From: Mycobacterium saskatchewanense
GTDB taxonomy: Bacteria > Actinomycetota > Actinomycetes > Mycobacteriales > Mycobacteriaceae
DNA length: 64,000 bases
Direction: 5' to 3'
NCBI RefSeq assembly: GCF_010729105.1
Contig: NZ_AP022573.1
Location: 372,001 to 436,000, forward strand
How positions within the stretch are numbered: position 1 is the stretch's first letter; every line of letters starts with the position of its first letter. The translations under genes and the position numbers were made by a program. Shown piece by piece: positions 48,018-57,929 of this stretch. The notes below the pieces were generated by a model. That model saw nothing but the letters and a program-made list of their open reading frames with translations, had not been told where the DNA came from and ran no database searches.

Positions 48018-48908
48018 TTAGGCACGCAGCTTCGCCAGCCGCCGCATCGGGCCGGCCAGTGAGCGGGCGTGCCGGGACATGCCCACCCACGGATCGGGTT
48101 GTCGTGTCAGACGTTTGGAGACGTCACGGACGGTGAAGCGGTCCGCCCGCAGGCCTGGGACGTCCAGTTCGTCCCACTCCAGCGGCGTCGCCACCGGGGC
48201 ACCGGCCCGGGGCCGCACGGAGTAGGGCGCTACCGCCGTCTGCGCGTAGGCGTTTCGCATGACGTCGAGGTACACCCGGCCGCCCCGCTTCTGCTTGCGG
48301 ACTTCGACGGTCCGGTGCACGGGGTCGTCGGCCGCCACCAGCTCCGCGACGTCGCGGGTGAACTGGCGGGCGGTGTCGAAGTCGGTGTCCGGGCGCACCG
48401 GCGCCACCACGTGCACCCCGCGGGACCCGGTCACCTGCACATAGGCGACAAGCCCGAGGTCTTGCAGCACTCCGGCCACCGTGCGGGCCGTCGCCCGCAC
48501 CACCGCGAAGTCGGAGTCGGACGGGTCCAGGTCGAACACCAGCCGATCGGGGTGATTCAGCCCGTTTCGGCGGGACTGCCAGGCGTGCAAGGTGATGCAG
48601 TTCTGGTTGGCGAGCCAGCGCAACGCCTCCGGGCTTTCGGCCACCGGATGCACCACGGTGCCCTGTTCTTTGACGACCTCCACACGGCCCATCCAGTCCG
48701 GCAGCGAATCGGCGAAATCTTGTTGCAAGAAGCCTGGTTCGGCGATGCCGCGCGGGAATCGCTGCGCGTTGAGCGGCCGCCCCTTCAGGTGTGGGAGCAT
48801 GGCGCCGGCCACTGCTGCGTAGTAGTCGACGAGGTCGCTCTTGGTGATGCCGTCGGCCGGAAACAACACCCGGTCCGGGTGGGTGACCTCGACCGCGGTC
48901 CGGCCCAT
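48018..48908 (-). CDS. LigD-type primase-polymerase (stand-alone)
   Basis: The 296-residue protein is the archaeo-eukaryotic primase-like polymerase of bacterial end joining and gap repair. It shows THPDRVLFPADGITKSDLVDYY, FPRGIAEPGFLQQDF, the metal-binding DLD at 126-128 (RLVFDLDPSDSDF), TGSRGVHVVAPV with catalytic Ser/Arg/His, and KRGGRVYLDVMRNAYAQTAVAPYSVR. It is separate from the ligase domain, as in mycobacterial Prim-PolC/PolD proteins, rather than fused as in LigD. Its ATG overlaps the ligase stop (TGATG), so the two are made together. Confidence 0.92.
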   Translation of the reverse strand: MGRTAVEVTHPDRVLFPADGITKSDLVDYYAAVAGAMLPHLKGRPLNAQRFPRGIAEPGFLQQDFADSLPDWMGRVEVVKEQGTVVHPVAESPEALRWLANQNCITLHAWQSRRNGLNHPDRLVFDLDPSDSDFAVVRATARTVAGVLQDLGLVAYVQVTGSRGVHVVAPVRPDTDFDTARQFTRDVAELVAADDPVHRTVEVRKQKRGGRVYLDVMRNAYAQTAVAPYSVRPRAGAPVATPLEWDELDVPGLRADRFTVRDVSKRLTRQPDPWVGMSRHARSLAGPMRRLAKLRA

Positions 48909-49906
48909 CAGCGGGACTCCCGCACGACCTCGGCGGCGTCCTTGTCGGTGCGCAGCCCCAGATAGCGCGGGTGGCGCAGCTTCCCGTCGCGGGTCCACTC
49001 GGTGAAACCGATTTGGACCACCAGGTCCGGGCGCACCCAGTGGGCGCCCGGCGCGCGCCCGAGGCCGCGGGTGAACGGCGGGGTGTCCCGGGTGATCGTT
49101 GACAGCCGGTCGTGCAGACGGTGCAGCGTCGGCTCGTCGAAGCCGGTGCCGACCTTGCCCGCATACACCAGGTCGGGGCCGTCGTAATAACCGAGCAGTA
49201 GCGCCCCCAGCTCGACCCGGCTGCCTTTCGGGCTGGTGTAGCCCCCGACCACCAGCTCCTGGTCGCGGACGCACTTGAACTTCAGCCAATTCGGCGAGCG
49301 GCGACCGTCGTATGTGGAATCGGCGAGCTTGGCGATCACGCCCTCGTCGCCGCGTTCGCACGCGGCCCGGTAGGCCCCGAGACCGTCTGCGATGCGGTGC
49401 GGCGTGTAGCGAAGCGGGCCGCCGAATTCGATGGATCTACGCAACAACCGTTTTCGCCAGACCAGCGGCACGTCGACAGTTGACTTCCCGTCGACGTGCA
49501 GCAGGTCGAACAGGTAGTAGTAGACGCGAACCGGCGATGCCCGGGCCACCTGTGGGTCGGTGATGCCCAGCCGGCCCTGCAGCCGCTCGAAGCTCGTGCG
49601 GCGCCCGTCGAACGCCACCACTTCGCCGTCGACCACGAACCGCGTCGTGTGCTGGGTGCCGAGCGCGTCGACTAGCTCGGGATACGTGCCGTTGAGCGAC
49701 AAGCGGTTTCGTGACAGCAGCCGCATCCGGTCGCCGTCACGGAAGGCCAGGCAGCGCATGCCGTCGAACTTGCGCTCGAAGATCCATTTCGGATCGGAGA
49801 ACCGCTTGTCGGTGAGGGTGGCCAGCGTCGGGGCGGACCAGTCCGGGACGGGCTCGTCGCGCAACACCGCGCGGACCGGCGCGGGCAGACCGGTGAAGTC
49901 CATCAT
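48908..49906 (-). CDS. ATP-dependent DNA ligase (stand-alone, NHEJ/LigC-like)
   Basis: The 332-residue enzyme has the adenylation lysine K46 in ERKFDGMRC (motif I KxDG), LLSRNRLSLNGTYPEL (Ia), FVVDGEVVAFDG (III-like), YYLFDLLHVDG, RGDEGVIAKLADSTY (IV) and WLKFKCVRDQELVVGGY (V). An OB-fold C-terminus (GALLLGYYDGPDLVYAGKVGTGF) follows. There is no nuclease or polymerase fusion. It is 90 nt downstream of the HAD-ATPase gene and overlaps the polymerase gene by one base. Nick sealing with the polymerase partner in excision or end-joining repair is expected; no ku gene is in the window. Confidence 0.93.
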   Translation of the reverse strand: MMDFTGLPAPVRAVLRDEPVPDWSAPTLATLTDKRFSDPKWIFERKFDGMRCLAFRDGDRMRLLSRNRLSLNGTYPELVDALGTQHTTRFVVDGEVVAFDGRRTSFERLQGRLGITDPQVARASPVRVYYYLFDLLHVDGKSTVDVPLVWRKRLLRRSIEFGGPLRYTPHRIADGLGAYRAACERGDEGVIAKLADSTYDGRRSPNWLKFKCVRDQELVVGGYTSPKGSRVELGALLLGYYDGPDLVYAGKVGTGFDEPTLHRLHDRLSTITRDTPPFTRGLGRAPGAHWVRPDLVVQIGFTEWTRDGKLRHPRYLGLRTDKDAAEVVRESR

Positions 49907-49996
49907 GACAATTCGTCCGGATCGATCGCAGGGTCGCTCGCGCCCATGGAGATAAGGTACCCGACGGGGCGGCGCCGTCCCGCGGACGACGGAGAC

Positions 49997-51658
49997 CTAT
50001 CGCTCGGACAAGAGGTACCGCTCCTGCACGGCATGGACGAGTTGACGCCGCACGCGCTCCACGTCGGCGGCGTGCCGCGCCATGACCTCGTCCTCCCAGG
50101 CCGCGACCTGCCTGGCGAAGTCCCGGTCGGCGATGGTGCCCTCCAACCAGCGGGAGAAGTCACCGCGATCGAGATGGTATTGCAGTGCTCGCTGATCGAG
50201 ATGGCTTATGGCAGAGCGGAATTCGTCCATCGTTGCGGCGGGTCGCACGAATTGCCCGTCAACGCCGTGGAAATAGAATCGGCGTTCGTCGGGAAGGCGG
50301 ACGTCGGCGTACTTCCGGCGGTGCCGCACGTGTTCGGTTTGGCGGTCGGCGACGGCGAAAGGGCGCGCCGGCCCGGAGCCCAGACGCATCACGGCCCGCC
50401 GCAGGGCGCCCATCTCGGTCCCGTTGTTGTCGTTTTCGTTGTCGGCCAATGTCAACGACACGTCGCTGCTGTCGATTTCGCCGGCGGGCAACGCGGCAGG
50501 GGCGAACGAGCACAACACGTAGCCGCCGCGCCGAGCCCAGTGCGCCTCCTCGTCGATGCCCAGGAGGTGCGCCTCGTCGTAGATGACCCAGTGCGGGAAG
50601 CCATGCTGCTCGCGGTGCGCCTCGGCCGTGGACCGCAGGCGGTGCAGGTATTCCATCTTGGTTGGGTCCGGCACCCCGGACAGGTCCACCACGAGGCTGG
50701 TGCGCGGATCCAGGTTGGTGACGAGCTCGGTCGGCTCGGGAAGGTGGTGGCCCCCGTCCACCACCCGCACGCCGTTGAGCTGCTGCAGCTGCACGTGGTC
50801 GCCTTCCGGGTCGATCACCAGCACGCAGTAGTGAGCCTGAATCCATCGCTCGGCCATCAGGCCAACCAGGTAGCTCTTCCCCGAACCCGCCGGGCCGGTG
50901 ACGAGGATGCGGCCCTGGCTCCCCGGAATGCGGGCCGGTGATTGATCATCGAAGGTGCCTATGTCGACCCACCGCCGCCGTGGACAGAACCGTCGCGCTC
51001 CGGTGAGATACGGGCCGGTCAACAAGCCGGCCAGCCCGGTGCCGTCCGCGTCGTCGAGGACGAGATCGGCGTGCCGCAGCACCGATGGGACGGCATCGGA
51101 GACCGCCACGCCAACTTCGGCGACACCGAACATCGACAAGTCGTTCTCCGCATCGCCGACCGCCAGGGCGTTGTGCGGCGAGAGATTGACCTCGGATAGC
51201 ACGGCGCGCAATCCGGTGCCCTTGGTGACGCCCGCCGGCAGCACCATGAGCGCATCCCGGTTCCGGATGATCTGGCAGTCCAGTCCCAGTTCGCCGATCA
51301 GGTCGACGACGATCGTGGCGTGCTCACCGTCAATCGCCACCAGCGCCTCGCCTCGGCGGAATGGCAACCGGCGCTCGAGGAGCGCATCGTCGAGGGCGCC
51401 GTCCACCGGCTCCGCCAGCACGCGCGCGCATCCCCTGATCACCATCACCGACCCGTTTTCGAGCACTACGGCGTCGAAGTAGTCGGCAATGCCCGGGAAA
51501 TCGGCCTGCAGCTCCGCTTCGATGCGGCCCGTCACCAGGACGACCGTCAGCCCTTTGCGCCGAGCATCGGAGATGGCGTCCAGCGCCTCGTGCGACAGCC
51601 GATCCCGCGATGTCAATGTGCCGTCGAGATCGACAGCCACGACTTGGAAAAACGCCAC
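49997..51658 (-). CDS. HAD-IIB phosphatase fused to a HerA-like P-loop ATPase
   Basis: This 553-residue fusion has three parts. Residues 1-220 are a Cof-type HAD hydrolase: DLDGT (10-14), T43 in VTGR, K146 in GVTKGTG, and GDAEND (168-173). Residues 240-450 form a P-loop ATPase with Walker A GPAGSGKS (255-262), IDPEGDH (282-288), and Walker B VIYDEAH (358-364), a DUF87/HerA-like pattern. Residues 455-553 contain FYFHGVDGQFVRP and QYHLDRGDFSRWLEG (493-507), then a charged coil, resembling the small domain attached to sugar-phosphate enzymes. The GTG lies 22 nt after hrp1. Substrate and purpose are unknown. Confidence 0.88.
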   Translation of the reverse strand: MAFFQVVAVDLDGTLTSRDRLSHEALDAISDARRKGLTVVLVTGRIEAELQADFPGIADYFDAVVLENGSVMVIRGCARVLAEPVDGALDDALLERRLPFRRGEALVAIDGEHATIVVDLIGELGLDCQIIRNRDALMVLPAGVTKGTGLRAVLSEVNLSPHNALAVGDAENDLSMFGVAEVGVAVSDAVPSVLRHADLVLDDADGTGLAGLLTGPYLTGARRFCPRRRWVDIGTFDDQSPARIPGSQGRILVTGPAGSGKSYLVGLMAERWIQAHYCVLVIDPEGDHVQLQQLNGVRVVDGGHHLPEPTELVTNLDPRTSLVVDLSGVPDPTKMEYLHRLRSTAEAHREQHGFPHWVIYDEAHLLGIDEEAHWARRGGYVLCSFAPAALPAGEIDSSDVSLTLADNENDNNGTEMGALRRAVMRLGSGPARPFAVADRQTEHVRHRRKYADVRLPDERRFYFHGVDGQFVRPAATMDEFRSAISHLDQRALQYHLDRGDFSRWLEGTIADRDFARQVAAWEDEVMARHAADVERVRRQLVHAVQERYLLSER

Positions 51659-51679
51659 AGAGAACGGCCTGTAGCGCGG

Positions 51680-52114
51680 TCAGCGGCTGGTGATGGCCGG
51701 CTGGGCGCAGACCGCTTTGACGAACTGGGCGATGGCGTGTTCCGGAAGATGACGTGCGATATCCGCTTCGGTGACTATGCCGACCAACCCGTGGTTGTCG
51801 ATCACGGGCAGCCGGCGAACCTGATGCTCCTCCATGACGGTGAGCATCTCCTCGATGCCGGCACTCCCGTCGACGTGGTAGGCGCTGCCCTGTGCCAGTG
51901 CACCTGTGTGGACGGAATTCGGATCACGTTCGGCGGCAATGCATCTGACCACTATGTCGCGGTCGGTGATCATGCCGTGTAGGCGGTCGTCGTCGCCACA
52001 GATCGGCAGGGCGCCCACCCCGAGATCGCGCACCTGCCGGGCGGCGGCGGTCAGTGTTTCGTGTTCACCGATACAGGCAGCGCCGGCGTGCATGATGTCG
52101 CGCGCAGTGGTCAT
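51680..52114 (-). CDS. hrp1: CBS-domain hypoxic response protein 1 homologue
   Basis: The 144-residue protein closely resembles M. tuberculosis Hrp1 (Rv2626c), a DosR-regulon CBS protein. Two CBS motifs are visible: DIMHAGAACIGEHETLTAAA to LPICGDDDRLHGMITDRDIV, and DGSAGIEEMLTVMEEHQVRR to GLVGIVTEADIARHL. C14 and C39, which form the disulfide in Hrp1, are both present. The ATG at 52114 follows AAGGGAGAAACGC. It is not at the M. tuberculosis hrp1 position, and it heads a different gene set (HAD-ATPase, ligase, polymerase). Confidence 0.93.
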   Translation of the reverse strand: MTTARDIMHAGAACIGEHETLTAAARQVRDLGVGALPICGDDDRLHGMITDRDIVVRCIAAERDPNSVHTGALAQGSAYHVDGSAGIEEMLTVMEEHQVRRLPVIDNHGLVGIVTEADIARHLPEHAIAQFVKAVCAQPAITSR

Positions 52115-52180
52115 GCGTTTCTCCCTTGCCCAAATGCCGATGTGTCTCAGCCGAAACTAGGGCGGCGGCGTCCCGACCTG

Positions 52181-52196
52181 TAGGGCCGTTAGACCT
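52181..52196 (-). promoter_or_regulatory. DosR-like box upstream of hrp1
   Basis: On the minus strand this reads AGGTCTAACGGCCCTA. It matches 10 of 14 core positions of the dormancy-regulon consensus GGGACTWWAGTCCC, and the GGCCCT end is common among real DosR sites. It lies 66 nt before the hrp1 ATG, a usual distance. The gene downstream is a classical DosR target, which raises the likelihood. Confidence 0.5.
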
Positions 52197-52202
52197 TGGT
52201 TC

Positions 52203-52814: not shown

Positions 52815-55574
52815 TTACCTACGCAACCGGATCTTCCACCGCACGAAGCCGGCATAGAGCAGCGACAGGGCGGCGAGCATGCCCATGTCCAGCAGCCAGG
52901 TCTTGGACGTGTGCTCCCAGAATCGGTCCTGGGATACCAGCGAACCCGGCACCAGGTTGCGCAGGTCGACCGTCGAGGCCGCCGCCGCGTAGCCCCACCG
53001 CGCCGGCATCTCGAAAGACAGTTGGTCGAGCCCGAGGCGGCCGGTCACCGGCACCATCCCGCCGCACAGCACGAGCTGCGCCATGACAGTCACCACGAAC
53101 AGCGGCATGATCTGCTCACTGGACCGCACCAGCGACGAAATCGCCAGTCCGAGAATGGCCGAGGCGACGCAGGTCGCCGCGACGGTGGCGAACAGTTCGG
53201 CGGTCGCGCCGACAGTCGAGTGACCCAGCAGGACGCCGCCCCGCGTAGGCGCGCTCTTGCCGATCACCACGATCGCCGTGACGATCGCCGACTGCACGAC
53301 GGCAAAGCCGCAGAAGACCGCGGTCTTCGCCAGCAGGTACGCCGTGGTAGACAGCCCGACCGCCTGCTCGCGCTGGAAGATCGCACGTTCGCCGACCAGG
53401 TCGCGGATCGTCAGCGCCGTCCCCATGAAGGCGGCCGCCGGCATCAACAGCGCGAGTATCTGGGCGGCTTCGTCCGGGGTGCCGGCGTTCGGGCCGGGAG
53501 CGTGGAATCCGTTGCTGCCCGGAACCGTCAGCGACAGCGAGCCCAGGATGAACGGCAACAGCGCCAGGAAGATGAAGTAGGCCCGGTCGGCGATCACCAG
53601 GCGGACCTGCCGCCGCGCGATGGTCGAGATCTGCCGCCGCACACTGGTGTGCACCGGTTCTCCCAGGTCCTCCGCCGCGTCGGCCCTCGCCGGCGCCCGT
53701 TTCTGGGACCGCTCCTGAGCCTCCGTCTGGGCCAGGAAGCGCCGGTTGGCTTCCTCGGGGTCGGCGCCGACGTTGGTGAAGATCTTGGCCCAGTTGGTGG
53801 TGCCCATCGCCTCGCCGATCTGGTCGGGAGAGCCGCAGTAGGCGATCTTGCCGCCGGGGGCCATCAGCAGCACCTGGTCGCAGACGTCGAGGTAGGACAG
53901 CGAGTGGGTCACGACGAGCACGACGCGGCCGGCGTCGGCCAGCTGGCGCAGCATCGTCATGACCTGCAGGTCCAGCGCCGGGTCCAGGCCGGACGTCGGC
54001 TCGTCGAGGATCAACAACGAAGGGCCGGTGAGCAATTCGAGCGCGACGGAAGCGCGTTTGCGTTGACCGCCGGACAACTTGTCCACCCGGGTCTCGGCGT
54101 GCTTGGTCAGGTCGAGTTCTTCGAGCACCCTGGCGACCACCTTGGCGCGGTCGGCCTTGCCGGTGTCCGGCGGCAACCGCAGTTCGGCCGCATAACCGAG
54201 GGCCTGATTCACGGTCAACTGCCGATGCACGACGTCGTCCTGCGGCACCATGCCGATCCTGCTGCGCAGCGACGCATACTCGGAGTGGACGTCGTGGCCC
54301 TCGAAGCTGACCGATCCGGACGTCGGGCGGGCGTAGCCGGCGATCAACCGGGCCAGCGTGCTCTTCCCGGCGCCCGAGCCGCCGATCACCGCGGTGAGGG
54401 TGCCGGGCCTGGCGGTCAGCGAGATGTTGTCGAGCAGCTGTTTGCCGTTGTCGACGACGTACTTGACGTTGCGCACCTCCAGACCGCCGCTGCGCGTTGC
54501 GGCTTCGCTGCGCTGGATCAGGGTGCCGTTGCGGAACACCAGGTCGACGTTGCCGATGGTGACGACGTCGTCCTCGGACAGGATCGCCGATCCCACCCTG
54601 GTGCCGTTGACGAATGTGCCATTGACGCTTTTGTCCCGGATCTCGGTGCCGAGCCGCGTCGGCACCAACGTCGCGTGCTCGCGCGAGGCCAACACGTCGG
54701 ACACGACGATGTCATTGTCGGCGGCGCGGCCGATCGTGACGGCGCCGGCTTGATCGGTTGGCGCCGCCCGGGGTGAGAGGAATTTCACCATTCTGGTCGC
54801 GAGGTTCGACACGTCGGCCGTCTTGGCGTCGATGACGGTGAACTCGGCGGCCGGCGTGGGGTCCGGGGTGTCGCTTGCCTCGGACGCTGCCGCATATGAC
54901 CTCGCCGCCTGGTCCGCGTTGACCACGGTCAGCTGGTCGGGCGGTGTCTCGGACGGCATTGGCGTCGATGACGTCGGCGCTCGGCGTGGCGGCGGCGCCG
55001 GCCGTGGCGGCGGAACCGGCTGCCGCGGCGGCGCACTTGGTGGCCGCCCGGGCTGGTTGTCCGGCCGGCCGCGTGGCGCAGCGCGCGGCGGCGCCCCGTG
55101 CGGCCCGTTGCGGGCGGGGCCGGGGGCCCGGCCGCCGGGCCGGCCCCGCCCCGGCATCGGGGGCTGCGTGGGATTGGTTTGCTCGGGCGGCGCGGACCAG
55201 GACTGGGTGGGCGGCCCGGAGTCGTGGGTCAACCGGGTCTGGCGCGGGCGGCTGATCGGGCCCTGCGGCGGACCGATCGCGAAGGTCAGCCGCGGTCCCT
55301 GCGGGTTTCCGACGTGGATGCTCTGGCCATCATGGATGTCGATGACGGGCATCCGATATCCGTTCAGGTAGGTCCCGTTCAGTGAGCCGTTGTCGATTGC
55401 CAGCCATCGGCCCTGGTCGAATCGCACCAGCAGGTGCGCCCGCGAGATTCGCGGGTCGGCGACTCGCACGTCGGCGTGCACGTCGCGCCCGATGACGACC
55501 TCGTACCCGGCCGCGAAGGAACGTTGGGACCCGTCGTACCGAACTGTCAGGACAGGCGGGGCGGGTCGATTCAC
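52815..55574 (-). CDS. FHA-FHA-ABC transporter (Rv1747 type)
   Basis: The 919-residue protein has FHA domain 1 (about 10-95: VVIGRDVHADVRV, SRAHLLVRF, NGSLNGTYLNG), a 150-residue Pro/Arg linker with Thr/Ser sites, FHA domain 2 (about 270-345: VTIGRAADNDIVV, SREHATLVPT, VNGTFVNGT), an ABC ATPase (GGSGAGKSTLARLI, LSGGQRKRASVAL, LLILDEPTSGLD) and six C-terminal ABC-2 helices. In M. tuberculosis, Rv1747 exports a phosphatidylinositol-mannoside-related product and is phosphorylated by the neighbouring kinase PknF, whose equivalent here is divergent. GTG 55574 gives MNRPAPPVLTV and is probably leaderless. Confidence 0.92.
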   Translation of the reverse strand: MNRPAPPVLTVRYDGSQRSFAAGYEVVIGRDVHADVRVADPRISRAHLLVRFDQGRWLAIDNGSLNGTYLNGYRMPVIDIHDGQSIHVGNPQGPRLTFAIGPPQGPISRPRQTRLTHDSGPPTQSWSAPPEQTNPTQPPMPGRGRPGGRAPGPARNGPHGAPPRAAPRGRPDNQPGRPPSAPPRQPVPPPRPAPPPRRAPTSSTPMPSETPPDQLTVVNADQAARSYAAASEASDTPDPTPAAEFTVIDAKTADVSNLATRMVKFLSPRAAPTDQAGAVTIGRAADNDIVVSDVLASREHATLVPTRLGTEIRDKSVNGTFVNGTRVGSAILSEDDVVTIGNVDLVFRNGTLIQRSEAATRSGGLEVRNVKYVVDNGKQLLDNISLTARPGTLTAVIGGSGAGKSTLARLIAGYARPTSGSVSFEGHDVHSEYASLRSRIGMVPQDDVVHRQLTVNQALGYAAELRLPPDTGKADRAKVVARVLEELDLTKHAETRVDKLSGGQRKRASVALELLTGPSLLILDEPTSGLDPALDLQVMTMLRQLADAGRVVLVVTHSLSYLDVCDQVLLMAPGGKIAYCGSPDQIGEAMGTTNWAKIFTNVGADPEEANRRFLAQTEAQERSQKRAPARADAAEDLGEPVHTSVRRQISTIARRQVRLVIADRAYFIFLALLPFILGSLSLTVPGSNGFHAPGPNAGTPDEAAQILALLMPAAAFMGTALTIRDLVGERAIFQREQAVGLSTTAYLLAKTAVFCGFAVVQSAIVTAIVVIGKSAPTRGGVLLGHSTVGATAELFATVAATCVASAILGLAISSLVRSSEQIMPLFVVTVMAQLVLCGGMVPVTGRLGLDQLSFEMPARWGYAAAASTVDLRNLVPGSLVSQDRFWEHTSKTWLLDMGMLAALSLLYAGFVRWKIRLRR

Positions 55575-55580
55575 CCTTCG

Positions 55581-55586
55581 ATTATC
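55581..55586 (-). promoter_or_regulatory. -10 element of a leaderless FHA-ABC transporter promoter
   Basis: Minus-strand GATAAT lies 6 nt before the GTG start codon, so transcription would begin on the start codon itself. The remaining 288-nt gap to the divergent kinase holds no other gene; a purine-rich GGGAGAGGAGGGG at 55839-55851 is the kinase ribosome site. Confidence 0.5.
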
Positions 55587-55862
55587 GGTCCGCGCGGCGA
55601 GTGCTCCCCATGGGACCCGCCTGTGATTTGGTTTTATCTCGATTTGGCGACTCATAGCTATCTCATAGCTCGCGGAGACCAATTGCCTACGGCCATCCGG
55701 CATCATTCGAACGTGGGGCTGCCGGCACACGTGCGGCCGGACGCGCGGTCCGCGTCCACGCCGGCCGCCGGCGTCGAGACGAAGGGGTGGGCCCCGATCC
55801 GCACGCGGTCGGGTGCGGCGATGCTTGACGGGTAGAGCCGGGAGAGGAGGGGACGACCATCG

Positions 55863-57929
55863 ATGGATGACCACAAGGGGACTACGCGGCGCCTGGACGC
55901 CGGACGGCGACTGCTGAGCAACCCGCGGCAGGCCCGTGAGGCGTTACGCGCGGGCTTCCAGTCGTTGCCCTCGGCGACGGTCGCGCATCTCTTCCGTCGT
56001 GTGCCCCCGGTGAGCTCTATCCCGGCCGCGGAGCCGGAGGCGCCGCACCCGCAGGGCGACGTGAGTGGGTCCCGGCTCGCGGTGGCCAACGGCGCGCCGT
56101 TCGCGGGCTACACAATCTTGCGGCAGCTGGGCGCAGGCGGGATGGCCGAGGTGTACCTCGCTCTGCATCCCAGGTTGCCCCGTCGCGACGTCATCAAGGT
56201 GCTCGCCGAGGCCGTCACGGCGGACCGAGAGTTCCGCGAAAGGTTCAACCGGGAGGCCGATCTCGCCGCGACGCTGTGGCACCCGCACATCGTCGGCGTC
56301 CACGATCGCGGCGAGTTCAACGGTCAGCTCTGGATCTCCATGGACTACGTCGAGGGCACCGACGCCGCCCGGCTGGTGAAGGAGCGCTTTCAGGACGGGA
56401 TGGCGATCGAGGACGTCTGTGCCATCCTCCAGGCGGTTGCCGGCGCGCTCGACTACGCCCACGATCGCGGCCTGCTGCACCGCGACGTCAAGCCCGCCAA
56501 CATCCTGCTCACCCACCCAGAAGACGGTGAGCGCCGAATCGTGTTGGCGGACTTCGGTGTCGCGCGCCACCTCGGCGACATCAGTGGAATCACCGAGACC
56601 AACGTCGCCGTGGGAACTGTGGCCTACGCCGCGCCGGAACAGCTGACGGGCGGCAAGATCGACGGGCGGGCGGACCAATATGCTTTGGCCGCAACGGCTT
56701 TCCACCTTCTCACCGGTGCACCACCGTTCCAGCACTCCAACCCAATCGCCGTGATCAGCCAGCACCTGCACGAGGACCCGCCGCTGCTCAGCGACTTCCG
56801 CCCGGAGTTGGCGGACCTCGACGACGTGTTCGCCAAGGCCCTGGCCAAGCAGCCCGAGGACAGGTTCGAACGGTGCCGGGCCTTCGCCGCCGCGTTCAAC
56901 GAACGCGTCGAGGCAATGGGCGACGTCGAACCAGACGCCGAGGCAGCCGTTGTCGCGGCGCCGAGGTCGCGCGGTGCCCTCTCCGCTTTGAGCCGCCGCT
57001 TCTCGTCGCGGGCGCGGTGGGCCGCGGCGCTGGTGTGCGCGGTGCTCATCGCGGTGGCCACGACGTGGTCGCTGTTGTACTCCTTCCAGCCCGACGGCTC
57101 GCCGAGCAATCCCGCGCTCGCCTCGAAGCCGTCCGTCCCGGCGCCCAGCGCCGCCGTGCGATCTGGGGGCCCGGCGCTGAACGGCACCTACCAGTTGACG
57201 TACGACCGCAGCAAGCAGACCGCCAACGGCATCCCGATCCGGCACGACGGAATCAAGAGCGATTGGTGGGCCTTCCGCTCCGTCTGCACCACGACCAATG
57301 GTTGTGCCGCGACGGCGGTCCAACTCGACGACGGCAACCACCAGGTGGCCAGCACCGCCGACGGCGGGCACACCGACACGCTGAGATTCGTCGGCGGCTA
57401 CTGGCAGGGCACGCCTCAGCAGCAGCGGGTGGGCTGCACGCAGCCGAACGGGCAGGTTCAGGCGACCCAGCAGGAGACCATCGCATGGTCGCTGGCCCCG
57501 CAGTCCGACGGCACGCTGCGCGGCACAGTCACCGAGACCGTGCTGAGCAACGAGTGCGGCGCGCAGGGCGCGGTGGTTCGAGTTCCGGTGGTCGCCACCC
57601 GCGCGGGTGATGTGCCCGCGGGCCTGAAGATGGCCGACCCCGCCCAGGCGATCGCGACGACCAACCCGCCGACGACTCCGGGTTCGCCGCCCGTCCTCGG
57701 CGGCCTGTGCAGCGACATCGACAAGCTGTCCTACGACCCGACCAACAACGAGCAGATCGTCTGCGAGGGCAACAGCTGGGCCCGCGCGCCCATCACCACC
57801 GGGGTGCACGCGTCCGGCAGCTCGTGCGACCGGCCCGGGCTTCCGGTGTTCGCCATGTCGACGTCGAACGACGGGCACCTGCTCGAATGCGATCCCGTCA
57901 CCCGGACCTGGACGCGCCCGGCGGGCTAG
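55863..57929 (+). CDS. Transmembrane Ser/Thr protein kinase, PknF type
   Basis: The 688-residue kinase has a G-loop [11 protein letters not shown] (89-99), K112 in VIKVLAE, H206-R207-D208 in [14 protein letters not shown] 230-232 and APE 257-259. A juxtamembrane basic stretch, one helix (about 386-406) and a 280-residue Cys-containing outer domain follow ([38 protein letters not shown]). It is much longer than M. tuberculosis PknF (476). The ATG at 55863 follows a purine-rich ribosome site but adds 78 residues before the kinase fold; a GTG at 56061 with AGGG upstream would remove most of them. Divergent from its likely substrate, the FHA-ABC transporter. Confidence 0.88.

What the first reader, a model, noticed from the sequence alone, without database searches (positions are those of the whole stretch)
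48018..52200. Possible dormancy-linked DNA repair operon: hrp1, HAD-ATPase fusion, DNA ligase, primase-polymerase
Four minus-strand genes are packed with gaps of 22 nt, 90 nt and a one-base overlap. The first is a close homologue of the hypoxia protein Hrp1 with both disulfide cysteines, and a DosR-like box lies 66 nt upstream. The last two are a stand-alone ATP ligase and a LigD-type polymerase, enzymes known in mycobacteria (LigC, Prim-PolC) to do gap repair in non-growing cells. In M. tuberculosis, hrp1 is not near ligase or polymerase genes. The set suggests repair enzymes put under hypoxic control together with an uncharacterised ATPase. This combination is new to me.
Basis: partly seen in the sequence, partly recalled or inferred. 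Interest (0 to 1): 0.8.

Follow-up and report, generated by a model that had tools for sequence, protein, structure and literature searches.

The report
Dormancy gene pair inserted beside repair genes
A mycobacterium carries a pair of predicted low-oxygen genes, one of them an enzyme that seems unstudied and joins a phosphatase to a DNA-pump-like motor, and the pair appears to have landed next to two older DNA-repair genes, so the pair looks like the discovery and the repair link looks accidental.

Summary
The four genes, their spacing and the DosR-like box are real. A DosR-site model trained on other genes in other genomes scores the box (52180-52199) 18.0; the best of 63,782 other window positions scores 11.3. 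The genome encodes DosR.

The "repair operon" reading is not borne out. The ligase and polymerase are not LigC/Prim-PolC, whose orthologues lie elsewhere. They belong to a split-LigD locus, DUF402-(3'-phosphoesterase)-ligase-polymerase, that has a DosR-like site at the ligase in 1 of 40 distinct loci. In one clade the box and HAD/HerA fusion, with or without hrp1, follow DUF402 instead. The full four-gene order was seen only here; in five such relatives no polymerase was found in the stretches read.

The interest lies in the cassette. The HAD phosphatase-HerA ATPase fusion is sporadic (28 of 297 genus genomes), predicted DosR-controlled in 16 of 28 loci, often set in dormancy islands, and preceded by a CBS gene in 15 of 32 loci from Nitrospirota and one Melainabacterium. 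I propose an energy-gated small-molecule phosphatase acting with its CBS partner; the chemistry is inferred.

The parts
52180..52199 (-). DosR/DevR box (CCAAGGTCTAACGGCCCTAC), ends 65 nt before the hrp1 start codon
   Evidence: Site model trained on other genes and genomes: 18.0; best elsewhere in the window 11.3. A site of 16.4 or more also precedes hrp1 or the fusion in L114, L115, L116, L131, L039.
51680..52114 (-). hrp1-like protein, two CBS domains, Cys14 and Cys39
   Evidence: Pfam CBS 81.3 bits; 194 bits to Rv2626c structures; only close copy in this genome
49997..51658 (-). HAD-IIB phosphatase (about res. 1-220) fused to a HerA-type P-loop ATPase (about res. 227-452) and a DUF5752-like C-terminal segment
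49907..49996 (-). 90-nt interval where eight loci of other genomes carry alignable sequence that in L215 is a LigD 3'-phosphoesterase gene
   Evidence: Interval comparison; L215 ORF is LigD_N PF13298 and matches solved PE domains
48908..49906 (-). Stand-alone LigD-type ATP-dependent DNA ligase (not LigC)
   Evidence: TIGR02779 273.4 bits over cut-off 227.75; LigC model PRK08224 131.2 under cut-off 296
48018..48908 (-). Stand-alone LigD-type primase-polymerase (not Prim-PolC)
   Evidence: PF21686 291 bits; best solved match 5dmu 271 bits, Prim-PolC 6sa0 151 bits
52292..52855 (-). DUF402 protein (start codon uncertain), upstream neighbour of the ligase in other genomes
   Evidence: PF04167; next to or one gene before the ligase in 17 of 20 loci without the cassette
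52815..55874 (-). FHA-ABC transporter (Rv1747-like by recall), locus anchor; 5' end uncertain
   Evidence: Pfam FHA, ABC_tran

Best explanation
A DosR-regulated dormancy cassette (box, hrp1, HAD-HerA fusion) entered the split-LigD locus DUF402-PE-ligase-polymerase once in a mycobacterial clade, at the place of the 3'-phosphoesterase gene. Shown by sequence: genes, box, the locus without the cassette in other species, the single clade, and missing or broken polymerase and ligase in relatives. Inferred: low oxygen or NO activates DosR, which drives hrp1 and the fusion. The CBS protein reads the adenylate or redox state and gates the fusion, whose ATPase (probably a ring, by analogy with HerA) controls a HAD-IIB phosphatase that removes phosphate from a small metabolite (sugar phosphate, phosphoglycolate or a ribose-phosphate compound) as cells shut down growth. 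In this species the ligase and polymerase may receive read-through transcription from the DosR promoter, a by-product of the insertion and not a conserved repair circuit.
For: Box; loci not used for training: WIN 18.0, L036 15.3, L039 19.9, L114 17.4, L115 18.0, L116 17.5, L131 16.4; 16 of 28 loci at 12 or more (17 of 28). Island context with DosR/DosS, USP, Hsp20, M50-CBS protease, WS/DGAT, ribonucleotide reductase. CBS gene directly upstream in 15 of 32 loci from Nitrospirota and one Melainabacterium, where the HAD-ATPase is 31-36% identical. Locus without the cassette: DUF402 next to or one gene before the ligase in 17 of 20; ligase-polymerase adjacent in 35 of 35 distinct loci where both were seen (41 of 41 before removing 6 repeats); DosR-like site at the ligase in 1 of 40 (46 with repeats). 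Five copies at this locus form one side of a branch, 99/99. PE-type interval in 8 loci. Catalytic motifs of both domains kept.
Against: No expression or binding data. Twelve of 28 loci have no site of 12 or more directly upstream (in L123, L126 and L127 the gene follows a WS/DGAT gene). A CBS gene is not always adjacent, and three of the six loci of the window's group lack hrp1. Some copies (L132, L134) had few recognised dormancy neighbours. Families outside the genus show modest context (USP in 4, CBS in 2 of 13 loci; controls 1 USP and 1 DosR-like match in 20 stretches), and no matched control was made for Nitrospirota. That this was an insertion rests on parsimony. The CBS-fusion contact, ring assembly and substrate are untested.
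Confidence: 0.6

Rival explanations
1. A true dormancy repair operon: DosR drives all four genes; the HerA-type motor and HAD phosphatase clean DNA ends for the ligase and polymerase, replacing the lost 3'-phosphoesterase.
For: Same strand, 90-nt gap, no terminator-like site in the gap; the cassette sits where a 3'-phosphoesterase gene sits elsewhere; the ATPase is HerA-type; L114 keeps hrp1-HAD-ligase.
Against: No polymerase found beside the fusion in 5 of 5 relatives with it at this locus; ligase not found or truncated in 3 of 5. In the six other genomes with both fusion and polymerase they lie on different contigs or 400 kb apart. The HAD domain matches small-molecule HAD-IIB phosphatases. 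PE is also missing in loci without the cassette (L210, L213, L214, L218).
Confidence: 0.12
2. Two unrelated units side by side: the ligase-polymerase pair has its own promoter in the 90-nt gap and is not induced by hypoxia at all.
For: The pair elsewhere has a DosR-like site in only 1 of 40 distinct loci; variable content of the gap among relatives, including a 3-kb interval in L115.
Against: The consensus scan finds no sigma-70-like promoter in the gap, though it would miss many mycobacterial promoters.
Confidence: 0.35
3. The fusion is a DNA-processing or defence enzyme of HerA type that hitch-hikes in stress islands.
Against: The match spans 226 model residues against 358 of HerA 4d2i, so much of HerA has no counterpart. 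I noticed no nurA gene beside the copies inspected but did not search for one. Recurrent partners are USP, CBS, Hsp20, PRTase.
Confidence: 0.15

Closest known systems
DosR/DevR dormancy regulon and its islands (M. tuberculosis hrp1/Rv2626c; M. avium; M. abscessus; OsdR of Streptomyces coelicolor, PMC5069765, passages read)
   Same: DosR box, hrp1, and in other genomes neighbouring USP, Hsp20, M50-CBS protease, nitroreductase and WS/DGAT genes
   Different: Carries a HAD-HerA fusion that is not named in the M. avium hypoxia table read (PMC11876180, section 3.1; that table also lists hypothetical proteins), and here lies outside any island
Split NHEJ apparatus of Methanocella paludicola type (structures 5dmu polymerase, 5dmp phosphoesterase; organism of 5dmp from PMC8656161 passages, of 5dmu recalled)
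   Same: Stand-alone ligase, polymerase and phosphoesterase; the window polymerase is closest to 5dmu among solved structures
   Different: Mycobacterial locus beside DUF402; no phosphoesterase gene in the window; Ku was not looked for
LigC/Prim-PolC repair pair of mycobacteria (PMC5663958, passages read)
   Same: Ligase plus primase-polymerase of the LigD superfamily
   Different: Different orthologues; that pair is at C1:3.33 Mb of the same genome
HerA hexameric translocase and HAD-IIB phosphatases (PH1421/1wr8)
   Same: Fold and catalytic motifs of each half
   Different: The two are fused; much of HerA outside the core is not aligned; substrate unknown

Membership tests
DosR regulon | DosR-type box in the promoter | tested here: met
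   18.0 against 11.3 for the best of 63,782 other positions; present in relatives. The literature consensus alone gives no signal.
DosR regulon | Genome encodes DosR | tested here: met
   85% match at C1:5284695 to the response regulator that lies beside a GAF-GAF-HisKA_3 kinase in L127
DosR regulon | Induction by hypoxia or NO dependent on DosR | not testable with these tools
   No expression data for this genome
Hrp1 (Rv2626c) | Two CBS domains and Cys14/Cys39 | tested here: met
HAD-IIB phosphatase | DxDGT, T/S, K and GDxxND motifs on a HAD-IIB fold | tested here: met
HerA/FtsK-type ATPase | Walker A and B in a HerA-like core | tested here: met
HerA/FtsK-type ATPase | Hexameric DNA translocation with a NurA partner | not tested
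   No search for nurA was made; assembly and translocation need experiments
DUF5752 | Pfam PF19027 above its cut-off | tested here: inconclusive
   21.9 bits against cut-off 23 for the window C-terminus; the precomputed annotation of some homologues lists PF19027
LigC | NCBIfam PRK08224 above cut-off 296 (taken as LigC by recall) | tested here: not met
   131.2 bits; the L232 ligase of the same genome reaches 586.2
Prim-PolC | Closest solved relative is Prim-PolC (6sa0/5op0, so named by recall) | tested here: not met
   Window polymerase: 5dmu 271.2, 2iru 176.0, 5op0 151.0, 6sa0 150.7 bits; L232 polymerase: 6sa0 639 bits
LigD | Ligase and polymerase domain models TIGR02779/TIGR02778 above cut-off | tested here: met
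   273.4 over 227.75 and 247.4 over 214.7
LigD | Single multidomain polypeptide | tested here: not met
   Two overlapping genes, no phosphoesterase gene between DUF402 and ligase; a multidomain LigD lies at C1:2.65 Mb

The most novel reading that the evidence does not exclude
The CBS protein plus HAD-HerA fusion is an old, mobile dormancy module shared by DosR islands of mycobacteria and stress islands of Nitrospirota and other phyla: a two-part switch in which a CBS sensor of cellular energy gates a motor-coupled phosphatase. Hrp1, whose role is open, would then be the sensor half of this pair where the partner is kept, and an orphan sensor in species that lost it.
Probability: 0.35. Interest if true: 0.75.

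Novelty: new variant of a known kind. Interest (0 to 1): 0.55.

Why it matters
Hrp1 is a known hypoxia antigen, used in a recent TB vaccine candidate (PMC13414557, start of abstract in the search listing), and as far as I recall has no agreed biochemical role. A recurrent neighbour with two clear enzyme domains, seen beside CBS genes in more than one phylum, gives a testable partner and a testable activity. The locus also shows how a regulon box can arrive with a cassette and place unrelated repair genes behind a hypoxia promoter, a caution for reading operons from one genome.

Tried and rejected
Literature DosR consensus (recalled) as sole test: uninformative, replaced by learned site models (the last also drops 4 training regions shared with hrp1 or fusion promoters, and lowers the count from 17 to 16 of 28). 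Short core pattern genome-wide: 8 sites against 4 for the control, not specific. LigC/Prim-PolC identity: rejected. My first guess that cluster c31 in L114, L115, L116 and L131 was the polymerase was wrong; it is another protein. Defence-system identity: only a weak mad8 match. RNA structure in the 90-nt gap: z -1.03, nothing. The C-terminal alignment A2 contained one out-of-frame fragment (L137) and was not used. Paper searches listed no report of this fusion that I recognised (63, 'DUF5752', had no hit); the library lacks most subscription journals. Fold matches of the C-terminal segment alone, Ku and nurA were not sought.
Full report
What is there. The window holds four minus-strand genes at the stated places: a two-CBS-domain protein close to Hrp1 (194 bits to Rv2626c structures), a 553-residue fusion protein, a 332-residue ATP-dependent DNA ligase and a 296-residue LigD-type primase-polymerase. 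Gaps are 21 nt, 90 nt and a one-base overlap. This is the only close hrp1 copy found in the 6.0-Mb genome.

The box. I learned a 20-base site model from upstream regions of genes other than hrp1 and the HAD-ATPase in 22 loci of other mycobacterial genomes, leaving out each tested locus in turn and dropping 4 regions shared with promoters of those two genes. The site at 52180-52199 scores 18.0; the best of 63,782 other window positions scores 11.3. In 400 kb of this genome six sites reach 17, four of them in the 20-kb stretch around the dosR orthologue. Six further loci that did not train the model have a site at the same kind of place: L114 17.4, L115 18.0, L116 17.5, L131 16.4, L039 19.9, L036 15.3. 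An earlier, less strict version gave the same picture. Against: the textbook consensus, as I recall it, gives nothing unusual here, and a short core pattern is not specific.

The ligase-polymerase pair is a different story. The genome has four LigD-type Prim-Pol matches. The LigC/Prim-PolC pair lies at C1:3.33 Mb: its ligase scores 586 bits on NCBIfam PRK08224 (cut-off 296; taken as LigC by recall) and its polymerase 639 bits to 6sa0 (Prim-PolC by recall). The window ligase scores 131 on that model but passes the LigD ligase-domain model; the window polymerase is closest to 5dmu. In the genus the polymerase has an orthologue at 1e-90 in 66 of 396 genomes. Ligase and polymerase are adjacent in 35 of 35 distinct loci where both were seen (41 of 41 before removing six repeats); some loci have only one of the two (ligase alone in L210, L213, L214, L226, L227; polymerase alone within the short stretch in L326, L335; L220 keeps a polymerase fragment). 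DUF402 stands next to or one gene before the ligase in 17 of 20 loci. In eight loci the DUF402-ligase interval holds 460-635 nt of alignable sequence; the one ORF tested there, in L215, is a LigD 3'-phosphoesterase (PF13298, 148 bits; solved PE domains 3n9b and 5dmp). So other genomes show a split LigD. A DosR-like site of 12 or more lies upstream of the ligase in 1 of 40 distinct loci (46 with repeats; the one is L310).

The insertion. In the window and in L114, L115, L116, L131 and L039 the HAD-ATPase, with the box and in three of the six also hrp1, stands after DUF402. The five unbroken HAD-ATPases of this group form one side of a branch, 99/99, beside the island copies (broken L131 left out). 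No phosphoesterase gene remains in the window interval. In the five relatives no polymerase was found in the 6-9 kb read downstream (tblastn E up to 1); the ligase is whole in L114 and L115, truncated in L116, not found in L131 and L039. The four-gene order was thus seen only in the window. The six other genomes that appear in both hit lists (G051, G058, G083, G165, G223, G250) have fusion and polymerase on different contigs or about 400 kb apart.

Where the fusion occurs. It is found at E 1e-100 or better in 28 of 297 genus genomes (one of them only 42% identical, two partial or broken), in 14 of 396 genomes drawn from the phylum at 1e-60, two of them in the genus, and in Nitrospirota and a Melainabacteria genome (best 80 loci kept). 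In many mycobacterial loci it lies among genes of the DosR type: USP, Hsp20, M50-CBS protease, WS/DGAT, ribonucleotide reductase, and in L123, L126 and L127 within 10 kb of dosR- and dosS-type genes. A site of 12 or more stands directly upstream of it, or of the CBS gene just before it, in 16 of 28 loci (L139 without a start and L140, L141 at about 40% identity were left out). A CBS gene is directly upstream in 15 of 32 loci outside Actinomycetota; 31 of the 32 are Nitrospirota, so they are not independent. Other neighbours: a CNNM-CBS gene (L133, L135, L136), a PRPP synthetase-like gene (L117, L120), KaiC-like genes (L140, L141), USP (L042), Acg-like nitroreductase (L040, L339) (Acg and L339 by inspection and recall). 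In other actinobacterial families 13 loci gave USP in 4, CBS in 2, PRTase in 1, and 20 control stretches from the same genomes gave one USP and one DosR-like match, a modest excess. No matched control was made for Nitrospirota.

How it most likely works. DosR control of hrp1 and the fusion is well predicted. The recurring company of adenylate-binding families (CBS, USP; recalled property) suggests an energy-sensing switch: the CBS protein gates the fusion, and its ATPase couples to a HAD phosphatase acting on a small phosphometabolite. The last step is inference. Ligase and polymerase may be read through from the same promoter in this species, but nothing I found suggests that selection keeps this.

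Literature. I saw search listings; abstract plus section 3.1 of PMC11876180; passages of PMC5663958, PMC10034137, PMC8022548, PMC5069765 and PMC8656161. None of what I read describes this fusion.

Noticed in passing
L140 9137-13164, L141 9063-13073: A second type of HAD-ATPase, about 40% identical, lies behind KaiC-like genes in two mycobacterial genomes.
   Followed up: partly
L117 7372-10642, L120 9069-12470: CBS gene, PRPP synthetase-like gene and HAD-ATPase in a row, hinting at ribose-phosphate metabolism.
   Followed up: partly
L215 4313-5889 and alignable intervals in L211, L212, L216, L217, L219, L225, L229: Mycobacterial split-LigD locus: DUF402, stand-alone 3'-phosphoesterase (tested in L215 only), ligase, polymerase.
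   Followed up: partly
L310 (G165): The only ligase pair without the cassette that has a DosR-like site (14.2) upstream of the ligase.
   Followed up: no
L131 8840-10530: HAD-ATPase in two frames in a contig that appears to equal the Mycobacterium bohemicum locus L070; a DosR-like box is still present.
   Followed up: no
L059 5581-10470, L052 5998-10456: In some Nitrospira the HAD-ATPase is followed by an AMP-binding/acyltransferase protein of a kind also found in mycobacterial dormancy islands.
   Followed up: partly
L339 20-4368: In another family of the same order the HAD-ATPase sits between an M50-CBS-like protease and an Acg-like nitroreductase.
   Followed up: partly
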